Origin: Actinomycetota bacterium
Lineage (GTDB): Bacteria; Actinomycetota; Thermoleophilia; Gaiellales; Gaiellaceae
Reading direction: 5' to 3'
NCBI GenBank assembly: GCA_009702325.1
Contig: WLID01000002.1
Location: forward strand, 62,001 to 126,000
DNA length: 64,000 nt
Position numbers and translations under genes: made by a program. Shown one piece after another: positions 14,942 to 21,048 of this stretch. Numbering within the stretch: the first letter of the stretch is position 1; the number at the start of each line of letters is the position of its first letter. The notes beneath the pieces were generated by a model. That model was not told where the DNA came from. It made no database searches and saw only the letters and a list, made by a program, of their open reading frames with translations.

Positions 14942-15049
14942 TAGACTGATGCCTGCCGGTGCCGAAACACGGATGTTTCTGCCTAGCCGGCAGACGCGCC
15001 TTTTGGCGCATCAAACTCCGTAGGCGTGCTCACCGGCGCCTCTCTAACG
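14942..15049 (+). promoter_or_regulatory. Promoter and structured leader of the TrkA-N pore-like gene
   Basis: TAGACT at 14942-14947 is a good -10 box. The predicted leader contains nested stems: CTGCCGG (14953-14959) with CCGGCAG (14987-14993), enclosing GAAACA (14964-14969) with TGTTTC (14974-14979). A second hairpin GCGCC-TTTT-GGCGC lies at 14996-15009. Bases GATGC at the expected transcript start could pair with GCATC at 15007-15011, which would compete with that second hairpin. Such alternatives are typical of cis-regulatory leaders. I do not find the conserved cores of the c-di-AMP (ydaO) riboswitch. Confidence 0.45.
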
Positions 15050-16102
15050 ATGATCCACAAGCTGCCATCAATCGCAACCGCTCCGCCACCCCGGAATGAG
15101 CAGATTCGGCGCCTCGTACTCGCGTTGGTCGGAGCGCTGCTGTTGTTTGGCGGCGGCAGCTTCGCCTACAAGAACGCTCTGCACTGTTCGCTGTTCGACG
15201 GCTTTTACCACACTGCATGGACATCCCTCCTGCACCCAATTGAGCCGCAGCACTCGCCGCGGGTGCAGGCACTCAACGTCATCATCGGCGTTCTCGGAGT
15301 GGCGTTCTTTGGCTACATCCTCGCCAACGCTCTCAACATCATCGCCAGTCAATTCACCGCAGCCGCACGAGAAAGAAAGCGAATCGTGGACACAATGAAC
15401 AAGCTCGAGGGTCACTACATCATCTGCGGCTACGGTCGCGTCGGGCGTCGCGCAGCGCAGGAGTTCATCGCCTCCGGCGACCCATTCGTGATCGTTGATG
15501 TCAGCGAAGCAGTGTGTGCTCAAGCCCGCGAGGCAGGGCTACTTTGCGTCCAGGGAAGCGCGCACGAGAACTCGGTTCTCCTCGAAGCGCGCATCGACAC
15601 TGCTCGCGGGCTGATTGCAACTGCTGATTCCGACAGCGAGAACCTCTACATCGCCCTCTCATCTCGCACACTCAATCCCGACCTGTTGATCATCGCCCGC
15701 GCAGGGAATAGCGACGCAGAGACCAAGCTCCGATTGGTCGGCGCAAACCACGTTGTTCAGCCCTTCACGGTCGCGGGGGTCGAGGCCGCCAATATCGCCC
15801 TCAAGCCTCAACTTGCCTCATTCCTCGATCTCGTTTCGTCGCACAAGGGTCGTGACCTACGCTTCGAGCAGTTCACGGTTCGCGAGGGCGCTCCGCGATC
15901 TGGTTCCACGATCCGGGAAATCTGGACGCCCGAGGAGTCGCGCGCACTGATCGTCGCAACCCAGGAGCACGACGGTTCCTGGCACGCTAATCCGGCCGCG
16001 ACAACGGTGCTCGAGCCCGGAATGATCCTCATCGCGCTTGGTTCGCACTCGCAGCTTGCAGACCTCGAGGCGCGCGTCGGTGCCGTAGCCGCAGCGGCCT
16101 AG
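15026..16102 (+). CDS. Two-helix pore-like protein with RCK (TrkA-N/TrkA-C) domain
   Basis: 358 residues from the GTG at 15026 (an ATG at 15050 is an alternative). One helix (29-47), a pore-loop-like region (55-78, LFDGFYHTAWTSLL) and a second helix (82-107) precede a Rossmann RCK domain with GYGRVG (135-140), FVIVDVS and GLIATADSDSENLY, then a TrkA-C domain (about 270-355). The layout is that of prokaryotic 2TM-RCK potassium channels. However, the TVGYG selectivity filter is absent; LLHPIEP occupies the place. It may be a non-potassium channel or a non-conducting regulator. It converges on the YqhA and voltage-sensor-like genes. Confidence 0.8.
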   Translation: MLTGASLTMIHKLPSIATAPPPRNEQIRRLVLALVGALLLFGGGSFAYKNALHCSLFDGFYHTAWTSLLHPIEPQHSPRVQALNVIIGVLGVAFFGYILANALNIIASQFTAAARERKRIVDTMNKLEGHYIICGYGRVGRRAAQEFIASGDPFVIVDVSEAVCAQAREAGLLCVQGSAHENSVLLEARIDTARGLIATADSDSENLYIALSSRTLNPDLLIIARAGNSDAETKLRLVGANHVVQPFTVAGVEAANIALKPQLASFLDLVSSHKGRDLRFEQFTVREGAPRSGSTIREIWTPEESRALIVATQEHDGSWHANPAATTVLEPGMILIALGSHSQLADLEARVGAVAAAA

Positions 16103-16124: not shown

Positions 16125-16676
16125 TCAGCGTGAATGAGTTCCGTATGGCGCGCTGTGCGACATTCGGTCAATGAACGCGAGAGCGACCGCCGACACGATG
16201 AACGTCAGGTGTATCAAGGTCTTCCACAGAAGATCCTTTGACGCAAGCTGATCCGCCTCAATGAATGAGCGAAGCAGGTGTACCGACGAGATGCCGATGA
16301 TTGCCATCGCCAGCTTCACCTTGAGCACGTTCGCGTTCACCTGAGAGAGCCACTCCGGCTCGTCGGGATGCCCTTCGAGGTCAAGACGTGAGACAAACGT
16401 CTCGTACCCGCCGATGATGACCATCATCAGGAGGTTCGACACCATGACGACGTCGACAAGCCCGAGGACACCCAGCATGATCGTCGTTTCGGTCAGCTGT
16501 TCGAATTGCACGAACATGCGCCAGAGCTCGCGCGTGAACTCGACGACGTAAAAGAGCTGTGCGCAGATCAGTCCCACGTAAAGAGGCACCTGGAACCAGC
16601 GGCTGAAGAAGATAAAGCCTTCGACCGTCTGCAGAACGAAGCGCTTTGATGTTGGGGTTTCGGACATGTGTTTCAT
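16125..16676 (-). CDS. UPF0114 / YqhA family membrane protein
   Basis: 183 residues. Four hydrophobic helices and the conserved block GGYETFVSRLDLEGHPDEPEW, then ISSVHLLRSFIEAD and IHLTFIVSAVALAFIDRM, match E. coli YqhA (UPF0114) closely in order and spacing. Role is unknown in general, although the family is widespread. It is 40 bases downstream of the voltage-sensor-like gene on the same strand and converges with the TrkA-N gene. ATG at 16676 and ATG at 16667 are both possible starts; neither has a clear ribosome binding site. Confidence 0.88.
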   Translation of the reverse strand: MKHMSETPTSKRFVLQTVEGFIFFSRWFQVPLYVGLICAQLFYVVEFTRELWRMFVQFEQLTETTIMLGVLGLVDVVMVSNLLMMVIIGGYETFVSRLDLEGHPDEPEWLSQVNANVLKVKLAMAIIGISSVHLLRSFIEADQLASKDLLWKTLIHLTFIVSAVALAFIDRMSHSAPYGTHSR

Positions 16677-16716: not shown

Positions 16717-17988
16717 CTAGACCGACGCGAGATGTCGGTTCCACGTGTTCTTGCGAAAGAGCACGAGGAGTGACGCGATTCCCGCAAGCAATGCCCCGAC
16801 GCCTGCGATCCCCCAGAAGCACGCGCCCTCCCAACGGGAGTCAGTCACGAGGTTGGGGTTGAGCGCTAGCGGTAGGTATGAGACACCCCACAGTACGCAG
16901 GCAACACAGCCAAGATCGACCGCTGCGAGCCCGATGCGTAGTGAAAGTTGCTCGACGTGAGCGATCACCGCAAGCGCGACAAGGAGAGGCCCAACCGTCG
17001 ACAGGATGTGGATCCACCGCGCACCCGCCGGGTACTGCAGGAGTGCAAACTGTCCGCTCGACCAGATCGCGAGACCGATCGCCCCAGCGGCGAGCTGGAA
17101 GGTCGACGCATGAATCTCAAGCGATGGATCTGTGACAACGAGCGACGTGCGGGACAGCTTGCGGTCGAGAATGAAGAGCAGTCCGAGCGCCGCGAGAGCC
17201 GTCGAAGAACCGTACGTCCAGGACATGTATTCGGCCCACGCGCGCACCCCGTACCGTGATGGATCGAGAGCAAACGGTGCGGCCACGAATCCCCAGCCGA
17301 GCACGCTCAGCATGAGGGACACGATCGCGAGGTGACCAAAGCGTCGTGAGAGGAAGCGCAGATGATTGATCACCGCGATCGCGACGAGCACAGGCCCGAC
17401 CACTTCGCAGATCCAAGCAGCACGCGAGCCGTGAAGGTCAGCCCACATCGCGAGCTGCCCGGCAGCCCACGCGAGCAGCCCAACGGCCGCAAGGCTCACC
17501 GTTACGCGTGTCACACGGATCGGCTCTGCTGCTCGAGCGGCCAGATCGAAGCGCTTGGTTCCGACCGCCTGACGGTGCACCCAGTAGAGCGCGCTTGCGA
17601 CGCGCGCAAGGCGCGCGAGCCGCATCAGCCGCGCCGCGCGAAGAACGCGCAGCAGACGCAGGACCCGCAGGTACTGGAGCGTCGCCCCTAGGCTCGGGAA
17701 CGTCAGCAGGACCACAACGAGCTCGAGCACGTGGGTACGGAGGTAGCGGTGCCGCTCGCTCACGAGCACGAGCGAGACGACGACATCAACACAGAACGCC
17801 GACCAGATCACCCAGTTGAGGATCGAGGCGCCGTGACGCCATGTGTCTGAGGCGTGCGAAAACTCGATGATGGTGGCGGGAATCGTGAGCATCGCTGCGA
17901 CGAGCAGCGGCTTGTCGGTCACGCGCTCCCACATGCTCTGTGGCGTTCGATATTGCTGCATACCGCTTTGTGTTCCGCCGATGCTCAC
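16717..17988 (-). CDS. Voltage-sensor-like domain fused to two tandem four-helix modules
   Basis: 423 residues. Residues 27-130 look like an S1-S4 voltage sensor: S1 about 27-43, S2 54-75 (with D68), S3 86-98 (with E89), and an S4 with Arg every third residue at 108, 111, 114, 117, 120, 123, 126 and 129. No pore loop follows. Instead there are two similar four-helix modules (about 160-277 and 295-412). Both contain GxxxWxxGQxA, VGPxLVAxAVIxH and an L(D/N)P turn, and both end in LFxLxRK, so they arose by internal duplication. GTG start with GAGGG seven bases upstream. It lies 18 bases after the stop of the 1013-residue exported protein gene. I do not know this architecture. Confidence 0.75.
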   Translation of the reverse strand: MSIGGTQSGMQQYRTPQSMWERVTDKPLLVAAMLTIPATIIEFSHASDTWRHGASILNWVIWSAFCVDVVVSLVLVSERHRYLRTHVLELVVVLLTFPSLGATLQYLRVLRLLRVLRAARLMRLARLARVASALYWVHRQAVGTKRFDLAARAAEPIRVTRVTVSLAAVGLLAWAAGQLAMWADLHGSRAAWICEVVGPVLVAIAVINHLRFLSRRFGHLAIVSLMLSVLGWGFVAAPFALDPSRYGVRAWAEYMSWTYGSSTALAALGLLFILDRKLSRTSLVVTDPSLEIHASTFQLAAGAIGLAIWSSGQFALLQYPAGARWIHILSTVGPLLVALAVIAHVEQLSLRIGLAAVDLGCVACVLWGVSYLPLALNPNLVTDSRWEGACFWGIAGVGALLAGIASLLVLFRKNTWNRHLASV

Positions 17989-18006: not shown

Positions 18007-21000
18007 TTAGAAGTTGACTGTCTTGCTGAAGCTGATCCTCAGTTTCACCGGGCCGGAGTCGCTCACACGGCCTCTCACGTACGCGGAGCAGGCGAAGTCA
18101 GATCCATCGGTCAGGAACGAGCAGCCAACGCCGCCGTCGATGTTTCCGGTGTAGATGCTGAAGCGAAGGTGGGCATGCAGGTTGCCACCGAAGCCGATCG
18201 CCCCAGCGAGCGTCGAACTGCCAGCGTTCGGCATGTAGATGCCGATCTGCATCGAGACGTCGCCGCTCACTGAAAAGTGGGTGCTCGCCCCGTGCCCAGA
18301 GATGTGGAGGCCGCCGTAGGTTTCGCTGAAACTCAGCGAACCGAAGAAGCCGCCGTAATAGGTGATCGTCGGCAGGTACCCGTACCCGGTGAGCGTCTTC
18401 GGAGTGGACGTCGAGGACTGCCACGTGATGTTGCCGGTAAGGGTCTTGTCAGGCGTTCCGTTATGCGTGCCCGAAAGGTTGAGAACAAAGCTTGAGATCT
18501 TTCCGCACGTAAACGTCATGCTGTCGGGCCCGAAGGTGAAGGCGTCCTTGTTTACTTCCAAGGCTCCCGACGACTGCGTCGTGAACGTTGCGCAGCCACT
18601 CGTGCTGATCGGCGCGCTGTAGGAGAAGCTGAACGACTTGAAATCAAAGTTTCCAGTCGAGACGTTGAGATCCGCACCCGACACGCTCAGGTTGGTGAGC
18701 GTGCTTCCCGTGAGGGAGGCGGACATCGTGAAGTTGCCAATGTCTGACTTCATCTGCCCCGCGAGCGCGATGTTCTTGGTCGCGGTTGAGAACGTGAGGT
18801 TCAGCGTTGGGAACGTCGTCTGACCAAATACAAGGTTCGTACCGGAGAGCGTGCCGCTCATTGCGCCACTCGCGTCGTACGTGAAGCTGCCACTGAATGT
18901 TCCGCCGCCGGAGGCCTTGCCTGCCATTGCAAACGACCCGCTGATCACACCTGCGGTGGATGTGAGCGTGCCTGACGCGCTCGTGAGGCTCACTGCCGCC
19001 CCCGTCGGTGATGAAAGCCCCGACGCACTCGCGCTCATTGACCAGTTCTTGCTGTCTGTCCAGCTCAACGTGATCCCGACAGTGGAGCCGTCGCCCATCA
19101 CGACCGTCGCTGCACCGCTTACCGTGGTTGCGCTCGCAGTCGTCGTCGCGCTGAGGTTCAGAACCGACGCGGTGAGCGTTGCGGAAATCGGGAAGTTCGT
19201 GAGCTTCACCGAGGCCTTGCCCGAGCTGTCGAACGACGCAGTTCCGGTGAACGTCCCAGACTGCCCCTGCGTCGAGCCTGTGATCGCAAGAGAGCCGGAA
19301 ACGGCCCCCGCAACGTCTTTCGCTGTACCCGAAACGGACGTCAGGGTCAGGCCACCGAGCTTGCCACTACCGGATGCTGTCGCAGACCAGTTCTTGGCAT
19401 CAGTCCAGCTGAGCGATGCGCCTACGGTGAGTCCACCCGAGAACACAAGGGTTCCCGAACCGGAGACTGACGCTGCTGCGCCCGTCGTCGCGGCCGTGCT
19501 CTTCGTGACCGTGAACGTCGAGGCGAGAAGGTTGGCGGTGATCGGGAAGTTGGTGAGGGAGATCGATGCGTTACCCGTGGTGTCCATGGAGGCGGATCCG
19601 GTGAACGCGTTCGTGCCACTCTTGCCCGCGAGAGTGAGCGATCCCGAAACCTGACCACCCGAGTTCGTGAGTGTCCCCGAGGCCGAGTCGATCGAGATCG
19701 TGCCAACCGTTCCGCTTCCGGTCGCAGAGATCGACCAATGCGTCGAGTCGTTCCACCAGAGCGTCCCCGACACGGTGAGCCCGCCCGAGACGTTGATCGT
19801 CCCGGATCCAGTGACCTTGCTCGGCGTGGTCGTGCTCGATGTCGAGGAACTCGTGCTGAGCGCGAGGTTTGTGACCGTAATGGTCGGCGACACCGCGAAC
19901 TGGTCAACCATCACGGACGCGGAGCCATCGGACGAAACACTCATTGAGCCCGTGTACGGGGTACCACCCGAGGACGTTCCACTAAGGGTGAATGAACCCG
20001 TCACGGTGCCACTTGAGTCGGCGATCGTGCCCGAGATCGTGCTGAAGGTAAATGGAGCTGTGGCCTTGACGCCTGTCGCGGTCATCGACCAGTTCTTGCT
20101 GTCTCTCCACGTCAGCGTGACCGTCGCGTCAACGCCGCCCACGACAACATCGGCGGTGCCGGTGACGGTCGAGCTGTCGGACTTGGTGACCGCCAGCGTC
20201 GTGACGAGAATCTTGGACGTGATAGCCAGGTTCGAGAGTGTGATCGAGGCGGTACCGCCCGTGCTGAACGTGGCGGAGCCCATGAACGCGGTACCCCCAG
20301 CTGACGTGCCTCCGAGCGTAAGCGCGCCGCTCACCGCACCGGACGTCGAACTGACGTTTCCGGAAATCGTGGTCAGGCTCGTGCTACCGATCGAACCCGA
20401 ACCATCGGCCGTGAACGACCAGTTGGACTTGCTGCTCACGGTGCCCGTGACGGCAGCCTGGAGCCCGCCCGACACGAGGGTGGCTGACACCGCAGCCGGG
20501 CTGCTCGTGCTGACCGTGACCTTCGCGTCGTTGAAGGTGACCGTTCCGATCTGGAATGTGGGGATCGATGCCGTTCCCGACCAGCCCGAGGAATTTCCCG
20601 TGAGAGTCACGGTGACGGGGGCTGATGTACCGATCCCGTACCCGGCAAGGCTCAGCGTGCCGTTGATCGTGCCGCCCGAGTCGGCAATCGTGCCGCTGAG
20701 TTGGCTCAGGTCGATCGGCGCACTGGAACTCGCCGACCCTCCCGAAATCGTGAACGTCCAGTTGTTCGCATCGGTGTAGGTGAGCGAGGCCGGAATCGTG
20801 TCGCCCGCGCTGTCGACGATGATCTGCGCGGTACCTGCGATCCCGCCCGAACTGCTCATCGAAAGGGTGAGCGTCGCAGCAGTGATTTGAGAGGTGATCG
20901 AGACGTTTGTCACGGTCACGGTCTTTCCCTGGGCGAGCGCAACGCCCCACGGGTTGACGGACGGTAGTTCGCCAGTCGCACCGAATGCTGACGGTGCGGC

Positions 21001-21048
21001 GAACGCCGCTAGCGCGGCGAACGTCGCCAGGAGGGAGCGCTTGAGCAC
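18007..21048 (-). CDS. Exported Ser/Thr/Gly-rich protein with six repeats of about 114 residues
   Basis: 1013 residues with a signal peptide (about 1-23, ending AFG-A). The mature protein is Ser/Thr/Gly-rich and beta-prone. A motif LxWxDxKNWSxxAxG recurs with its last Trp at residues 97, 210, 320, 438, 554 and 669, giving a period of 110-118. Each unit also contains SGTxxDSxGxVxGSxxLxG. The C-terminal third differs, with Gly/Tyr-rich strands and paired Cys (GCATF, FTCGK, VGCSFL, DFACSAY). No LPXTG or other sorting signal is seen. It is probably secreted or surface-associated, an adhesin or matrix-like role being inference. First gene of a minus-strand operon with the voltage-sensor-like and YqhA genes; GTG start. 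Confidence 0.75.
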   Translation of the reverse strand: MLKRSLLATFAALAAFAAPSAFGATGELPSVNPWGVALAQGKTVTVTNVSITSQITAATLTLSMSSSGGIAGTAQIIVDSAGDTIPASLTYTDANNWTFTISGGSASSSAPIDLSQLSGTIADSGGTINGTLSLAGYGIGTSAPVTVTLTGNSSGWSGTASIPTFQIGTVTFNDAKVTVSTSSPAAVSATLVSGGLQAAVTGTVSSKSNWSFTADGSGSIGSTSLTTISGNVSSTSGAVSGALTLGGTSAGGTAFMGSATFSTGGTASITLSNLAITSKILVTTLAVTKSDSSTVTGTADVVVGGVDATVTLTWRDSKNWSMTATGVKATAPFTFSTISGTIADSSGTVTGSFTLSGTSSGGTPYTGSMSVSSDGSASVMVDQFAVSPTITVTNLALSTSSSTSSTTTPSKVTGSGTINVSGGLTVSGTLWWNDSTHWSISATGSGTVGTISIDSASGTLTNSGGQVSGSLTLAGKSGTNAFTGSASMDTTGNASISLTNFPITANLLASTFTVTKSTAATTGAAASVSGSGTLVFSGGLTVGASLSWTDAKNWSATASGSGKLGGLTLTSVSGTAKDVAGAVSGSLAITGSTQGQSGTFTGTASFDSSGKASVKLTNFPISATLTASVLNLSATTTASATTVSGAATVVMGDGSTVGITLSWTDSKNWSMSASASGLSSPTGAAVSLTSASGTLTSTAGVISGSFAMAGKASGGGTFSGSFTYDASGAMSGTLSGTNLVFGQTTFPTLNLTFSTATKNIALAGQMKSDIGNFTMSASLTGSTLTNLSVSGADLNVSTGNFDFKSFSFSYSAPISTSGCATFTTQSSGALEVNKDAFTFGPDSMTFTCGKISSFVLNLSGTHNGTPDKTLTGNITWQSSTSTPKTLTGYGYLPTITYYGGFFGSLSFSETYGGLHISGHGASTHFSVSGDVSMQIGIYMPNAGSSTLAGAIGFGGNLHAHLRFSIYTGNIDGGVGCSFLTDGSDFACSAYVRGRVSDSGPVKLRISFSKTVNF

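What the first reader, a model, noticed from the sequence alone, without database searches (positions are those of the whole stretch)
16717..17988. Voltage-sensor-like domain attached to an internally duplicated four-helix membrane module
Seen: S4-like helix with Arg at eight consecutive third positions (108-129), preceded by S1-S3-like helices, but no pore loop afterwards. The remaining 290 residues are two clearly related four-helix modules (160-277 and 295-412; shared GQ(L/F)A, VGPxLVAxAVI and LFxLxRK landmarks). Known voltage-sensor proteins carry a pore, a phosphatase or nothing. A sensor on a duplicated non-pore membrane module is an architecture I cannot place, and it may be a voltage-controlled transporter or enzyme.
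Basis: partly seen in the sequence, partly recalled or inferred. Interest (0 to 1): 0.8.

Follow-up and report, generated by a model that had tools for sequence, protein, structure and literature searches.

The report
Voltage sensor on unknown duplicated module
An actinobacterium carries a gene that joins the voltage-sensor domain of ion channels, without a pore, to a duplicated membrane module that matched no known family here, so this module is likely switched by membrane voltage, a kind of control described in a few eukaryotic proteins.

Summary
Window 16717-17988 (minus strand) is one 423-residue frame. Residues 20-130 are an S1-S4 voltage sensor: Pfam Ion_trans over its cut-off, structural matches to Cav/Nav/KCNQ sensors, eight arginines at every third position. 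Its best-matching relatives are sensors of ordinary 250-residue K+ channels. No pore follows. Residues 161-412 are two related four-helix modules (alignment score 156, at most 86 in 3 x 1000 shuffles) without a Pfam, NCBIfam or convincing PDB match.

The fusion is not an artefact: a 65% identical copy lies in the same gene order in a second genome, and a metagenome protein shows the join from S4 onward. The duplicated module also exists alone, without a sensor, in two other families of the phylum, so it is an effector in its own right. A review states that all prokaryotic voltage sensors come with a pore; this is an exception.

Best reading: voltage moves S4, which pulls a conserved cytoplasmic linker and switches the module, likely a transporter. 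That the sensor moves, and what the module does, are inferred.

The parts
16717..17988 (-). whole gene: voltage sensor + linker + duplicated 8-helix module, 423 aa
   Evidence: single open frame; SD-like AGAGGG before the GTG
17599..17931 (-). S1-S4 voltage-sensor domain, residues 20-130
   Evidence: Pfam Ion_trans; 12-row alignment with channel sensors; model aligned to Cav/Nav/KCNQ sensors
17857..17910 (-). S1, residues 27-44
   Evidence: hydropathy, model helix 16-42
17761..17829 (-). S2, residues 54-76, with Phe65 (invariant in 12 of 12) and acidic residue 68
   Evidence: model helix 48-75
17689..17739 (-). S3, residues 84-100, with Glu89
17599..17679 (-). S4, residues 104-130, eight Arg at every third position
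   Evidence: second half has low pLDDT
17509..17598 (-). cytoplasmic linker (side predicted), residues 131-160, shared by the three fusion proteins
   Evidence: 13 of 30 residues identical in 3 of 3: S132 L134 W136 H138 R139 Q140 V142 G143 R146 R152 E155 P156 V159
17155..17508 (-). repeat 1, four-helix module, residues 161-278
16753..17106 (-). repeat 2, four-helix module, residues 295-412
16125..16676 (-). downstream UPF0114 gene, 40-base gap, same order in the second genome
   Evidence: Pfam PF03350 E 8.4e-36; L056
18007..21048 (-). upstream gene, 1013 aa repetitive, possibly secreted protein, 18-base gap; a 901-aa gene at the same place in the second genome (the two were not aligned)
15026..16102 (+). 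convergent gene: TrkA_N/TrkA_C (RCK) protein with a membrane part but no GYG filter
   Evidence: Pfam; sequence; counterparts

Best explanation
One 423-residue reading frame joins a voltage-sensor-family domain, without a pore, to a duplicated membrane module that matched no known family here, and membrane voltage likely controls that module, which is predicted to act as a transporter. Shown: the joined frame in two genomes, the sensor's similarity to K+-channel sensors, the eight arginines, the duplication, and the module's separate existence. Predicted (model and charge bias): twelve membrane helices, N and C termini inside, S4 leading into a cytoplasmic linker and then the first helix of the module, i.e. 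the module stands where S5-S6 stands in a channel. Inferred: when the membrane potential changes, S4 moves, drags the linker (residues 131-160) and changes the state of the two-fold repeated module, opening or closing a solute or ion path between or within the two halves. The neighbouring UPF0114 protein may be a partner.
For: Sensor: Pfam over cut-off; best-matching sensors belong to Kv channels, 49% (L003, L004) and 51% over 19% of the query (P0004); 12 of the 18 sensor loci examined have a T(V/I)GYGD filter; R108, R111, R114, R117 and F65 invariant in 12 of 12 rows; all eight Arg kept in the 65% identical relative; model matches to solved sensors. Constraint: dN/dS about 0.125 over residues 16-412 (dS near saturation); S4 70%, linker 70%, repeat 2 74% identical. 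Linker: 13 of 30 residues identical in 3 of 3 fusions. Module: duplication, confident model, pLDDT 88.6, pTM 0.85, stand-alone homologues in families f5 and f27. Topology: 21 K+R in segments assigned inside against 6 outside. A duplicated, largely apolar helix bundle without a soluble domain fits a transporter better than an enzyme (inference).
Against: No functional data. The second half of S4 and the linker have low confidence (pLDDT 40-60 over residues 111-150) and pTM 0.68 leaves the sensor-module packing open, so coupling is not shown. No acidic residue is invariant or nearly invariant over the 16 module rows (invariant: R276 K277 I292 A294 L299 G305 L329 L348 G353 W386), so no transport or catalytic site is evident. 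Neighbours of stand-alone modules are not consistent (Cu-type P-ATPase-like and argininosuccinate-lyase-like genes in f5; sulfatase-like and TetR-like genes in f27, names recalled). The whole fusion was found in two genomes only (2 of 129 of the order). The sensor's place among channel sensors is unresolved in a tree.
Confidence: 0.42

Rival explanations
1. The voltage sensor is itself the conducting part, as in Hv1, and the duplicated module is only a scaffold or dimer-holder.
For: No pore domain follows the sensor; Hv1 shows that an S1-S4 domain can conduct (PMC10377628, passages).
Against: Hv1 hallmarks are missing: S4 has no Trp (RxWRxxR in PMC10377628) and S1 residues 27-41 hold no Asp or Glu. 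The sensor is most like those of K+ channels. The module exists without any sensor, so it has a job of its own.
Confidence: 0.13
2. The protein is a voltage-sensing subunit that controls a partner, the UPF0114 protein encoded just downstream.
For: Same gene order in both genomes; in the genus UPF0114 occurs in 2 of 13 genomes, exactly the two with the fusion, against 22 of 389 in the class.
Against: The two genomes may share one event, so the co-occurrence may count once; no strong module match was seen in the other 20 class genomes with UPF0114 (samples of the class, not all of it); 5 of 5 genomes with a stand-alone module have no UPF0114 match, two of them under 80% complete.
Confidence: 0.2
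3. The sensor is a relic that only anchors the module; voltage has no effect.
For: The module also occurs without a sensor; low model confidence in S4 and linker.
Against: All eight arginines kept at 65% overall identity, purifying selection over S1-S4, charge-transfer-centre-like residues kept.
Confidence: 0.15
4. The module is an enzyme or a redox protein (for example His-ligated cofactor binding) switched by voltage.
For: A His in helix 2 of both repeats is kept in the fusions and in the f27 stand-alone proteins (H209, H344).
Against: That His is absent in the f5 stand-alone clade; no agreed enzyme family over the 16 module rows.
Confidence: 0.1

Closest known systems
Kv-type K+ channels of the same bacterial family (about 250 aa, e.g. 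L003, L005) and P0004
   Same: sensor domain 42-51% identical, same S4 arginine ladder
   Different: they continue into a pore with a TVGYGD filter; here a duplicated 8-helix module takes its place
SLC9C1 (sNHE), voltage-regulated Na+/H+ exchanger of sperm
   Same: a voltage sensor joined to a non-channel membrane module
   Different: animal protein; the exchanger domain precedes the sensor and a cyclic-nucleotide domain follows (PMC10620092 abstract; PMC13095418 and PMC10651576 passages); here the module follows S4 and has no Pfam match
Voltage-sensing phosphatases (Ci-VSP)
   Same: sensor joined to an effector without a pore
   Different: effector is a phosphoinositide phosphatase (PMC13095418 and PMC10651576 passages); here it is membrane-embedded by prediction
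Hv1 proton channels
   Same: sensor without S5-S6
   Different: found in eukaryotes only so far, with S4 Trp and an acidic residue in S1 (PMC10377628 passages), both missing here
TMEM266
   Same: S1-S4 domain without a pore, function unknown
   Different: vertebrate, closer to Nav/Hv1 sensors (PMC13095418 passage; PMC6392501 search listing)
Stand-alone duplicated modules P0007-P0015 and L073/L070/L071
   Same: same two-repeat module, 21-34% identical to the window's
   Different: no voltage sensor; no named family found

Membership tests
Voltage-sensor domain (S1-S4) | match to the Ion_trans family over its cut-off | tested here: met
   27.4 bits, cut-off 25, E 2.3e-6. The relative P0005 scores 21.3, under the cut-off.
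Voltage-sensor domain (S1-S4) | S4 with Arg/Lys at every third position | tested here: met
   eight Arg, 108-129; 8 of 8 kept in P0005
Voltage-sensor domain (S1-S4) | aromatic plus acidic residues of the charge-transfer centre in S2/S3 (PMC13095418 names this site; residue assignment by me) | tested here: met
   F65 invariant in 12 of 12; position 68 acidic in 12 of 12, position 89 acidic in 11 of 12 rows
Voltage-sensor domain (S1-S4) | three-dimensional match to solved sensors | tested here: met
Voltage-sensor domain (S1-S4) | gating charge movement | not testable with these tools
   needs electrophysiology or fluorometry
Voltage-gated K+/Na+/Ca2+ channel | pore domain S5-P-S6 with selectivity filter | tested here: not met
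   Ion_trans match stops at profile position 112 of 241; no Ion_trans_2 match at E 1; no GYG in the frame
Hv1 proton channel | S4 Trp (RxWRxxR) and acidic residue in mid S1 | tested here: not met
   no Trp in 104-130, no Asp/Glu in 27-41; criteria from PMC10377628 passages
Voltage-sensing phosphatase | phosphatase domain after the sensor | tested here: not met
   no Pfam match beyond Ion_trans at E 1, none for the C-terminal 274 residues at E 10
SLC9C1-type exchanger | Na+/H+ exchanger domain and cyclic-nucleotide-binding domain | tested here: not met
   no such Pfam match
any known membrane fold for the module | clear structural match | tested here: inconclusive

The most novel reading that the evidence does not exclude
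This is the first pore-less voltage-sensor protein in prokaryotes: a bacterial voltage-gated transporter made by swapping the pore of a K+ channel for a duplicated eight-helix effector of a new family, a bacterial counterpart of SLC9C1 that arose on its own.
Probability: 0.33. Interest if true: 0.9.

Novelty: new variant of a known kind. Interest (0 to 1): 0.7.

Why it matters
A review states that all prokaryotic voltage sensors, as far as known, come with a K+, Na+ or Ca2+ pore (PMC10377628, passage), and SLC9C1 is called the only known transporter regulated by voltage sensors (PMC10620092, abstract). A bacterial sensor joined to an unrelated membrane module would show that the sensor is portable outside eukaryotes. 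With sensor-free relatives of the same module at hand, it makes testable what linker a sensor needs to control a foreign membrane protein, and it asks what bacteria use membrane-potential sensing for besides ion conduction.

Tried and rejected
Chance or artefact: rejected; one uninterrupted frame in two genomes, purifying selection. Homology of the repeats with the sensor itself: hhalign probability 0.2, no support. Homology of the module with UPF0114: probability 0.1. Module in a known family: no Pfam match for the window's part at E 10; over the 16 module rows 13 families matched weakly at E 1, not in agreement (most widespread Herpes_LMP1 in 5 of 16, best E 0.0084; lowest E 0.00027, TgpA_N, in 2; Acyl_transf_3 0.00084, in 3); NCBIfam none at E 1; PDB by sequence best E 0.57. 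Fold search: nothing at E 0.001 in PDB or BFVD; the middling rhodopsin, GPCR and succinate-acetate-permease rows are not used. Weak genome matches were treated as chance: 12 of the 14 genomes (E 0.01-0.44), 23 of the 27 (E 0.002-0.09), 7 of the 9 (E 0.0008-0.009), and a second match in G163 (E 0.0066). Of these only L040 was looked at closely, and lies across a 751-aa frame on the other strand; L041's frames were listed without a clear result. Sensor tree: the fusions form one group (94/99), but their place among the channels is unresolved (11 of 13 inner branches open). Plasmids and phages: no match at E 1e-5. Neighbours of UPF0114 in 12 other loci showed no evident link to sensors; frames were read by eye only. 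Literature: searches showed 15 of 62, 11 of 11, 11 of 11, 7 of 7 and 10 of 51 papers; no title shown concerns such a bacterial fusion. The library holds open-licence papers only. UPF0114: 12 papers listed, none opened.

I did not repeat it and used the genome search instead, as its message says.

Full report
What is there. The gene lies on the minus strand at 16717-17988 and codes for 423 residues with a GTG start. It sits 18 bases behind a 1013-residue repetitive, possibly secreted protein (18007-21048) and 40 bases before a UPF0114 gene (16125-16676), all in one direction; an RCK (TrkA_N/TrkA_C) gene converges on them.

The module. Residues 161-278 and 295-412 align with score 156, beyond all of 3 x 1000 shuffles (maximum 86). 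Predicted alone with 16 rows the module reaches pLDDT 88.6 and pTM 0.85, with one four-helix pattern twice. It has no Pfam, NCBIfam or significant PDB sequence match and no convincing fold match.

The module lives alone elsewhere. A profile of the six repeats, searched in 399 genomes of the class, gave four clear genomes out of 27 listed: the two with the fusion, and G163 and G168 of family f5. Their proteins have 278 residues from the start that I chose (the frames are open further upstream) and the database record P0007 has that length too. In family f5 that is 2 of 42 genomes. In 296 genomes of the phylum, besides the window's, one genome, G413 of family f27, has a clear match, a 301-residue stand-alone protein; in that family it is 3 of 4 genomes. 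A search of 5.8 billion proteins (only 7998 candidates scored) gave 11 proteins: the window's own, P0003 and P0006, and eight stand-alone ones of 268-278 residues. The module is thus an independent, rare family without a name in these libraries, and the sensor was added in, or lost outside, the window's genus. In the order it occurs in 2 of 129 genomes.

How the two parts meet. Between S4 and the module lie 30 residues (131-160); 13 are identical in the three fusion proteins. The stand-alone proteins lack its first part; the tails of those in f5 align with its last dozen residues. P0003 (327 residues) begins only at S4, so it supports the S4-linker-module join but not S1-S3; P0006 covers only the later part of the module. 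Charge bias (21 K+R in the stretches assigned inside, 6 outside; borders and sides set by me) puts S4's end, the linker and both module ends in the cytoplasm. This is the layout of a channel with its pore exchanged.

Selection. Against the second genome dN is 0.306 and dS about 2.45 (near saturation), ratio about 0.125; repeat 2 is the most conserved part (74%), S4 and linker 70%, S1-S3 and repeat 1 59%. The tails (residues 1-15 and 413-423) are not conserved.

Partners. UPF0114 occurs in 2 of 13 genomes of the genus, the same two, and in 22 of 389 of the class, but in none of the five genomes with stand-alone modules. As the two genomes may share a single event, this is a lead only. The window's genome (93% complete) has no Ion_trans_2 pore match at E 0.01, and the window's RCK neighbour has no GYG.

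Comparison with print. PMC10377628 (passages) says that all prokaryotic sensors known so far are accompanied by a pore; PMC10620092 (abstract) calls SLC9C1 the only known transporter regulated by voltage sensors; PMC13095418 and PMC10651576 (passages) between them name channels, phosphatases, Hv1, TMEM266 and SLC9C1 as proteins with S1-S4 domains, and PMC10651576 also a protozoan cyclase with sensor and pore. Searches showed no paper on a bacterial fusion of this kind among the titles listed.

Verdict. The architecture is real and, by these searches, undescribed. Voltage control is likely but inferred, and transport is the preferred but unproven role of the module.

Noticed in passing
window 15026-16102: RCK protein with a two-helix membrane part whose filter position reads HTAWTSLLHPIEP, without GYG; genus paralogues read TASLTGLDTTP or TATLTGLDT. 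A K+-channel-like family with an unusual or lost filter.
   Followed up: partly
window 16125-16676: UPF0114 gene present in the genus only in the two genomes that hold the fusion (2 of 13), directly downstream of it in both.
   Followed up: partly
L016, L017, L020 (family f3, genus g39): Sensor-like S1-S3 domains with few S4 arginines, followed by a short hydrophobic stretch without a K+ filter: possibly another pore-less sensor-like family.
   Followed up: no
window 18007-21048: 1013-residue Ser/Thr/Gly-rich repetitive protein with a signal-like start, directly upstream of the fusion; a 901-residue gene lies at the same place in L056 (judged by eye).
   Followed up: no
L073 5765-6670, L038 1465-2301 and L039 1060-1896: Stand-alone duplicated modules: beside a sulfatase-like gene and a divergent TetR-like gene in f27, beside a Cu-type P-ATPase-like and an argininosuccinate-lyase-like gene in f5 (names recalled).
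   Followed up: partly
window 17362-17364 and 16957-16959 (H209 and H344 of the fusion): A His in helix 2 of both repeats, kept in the fusions and the f27 stand-alone proteins but not in the f5 clade.
   Followed up: no
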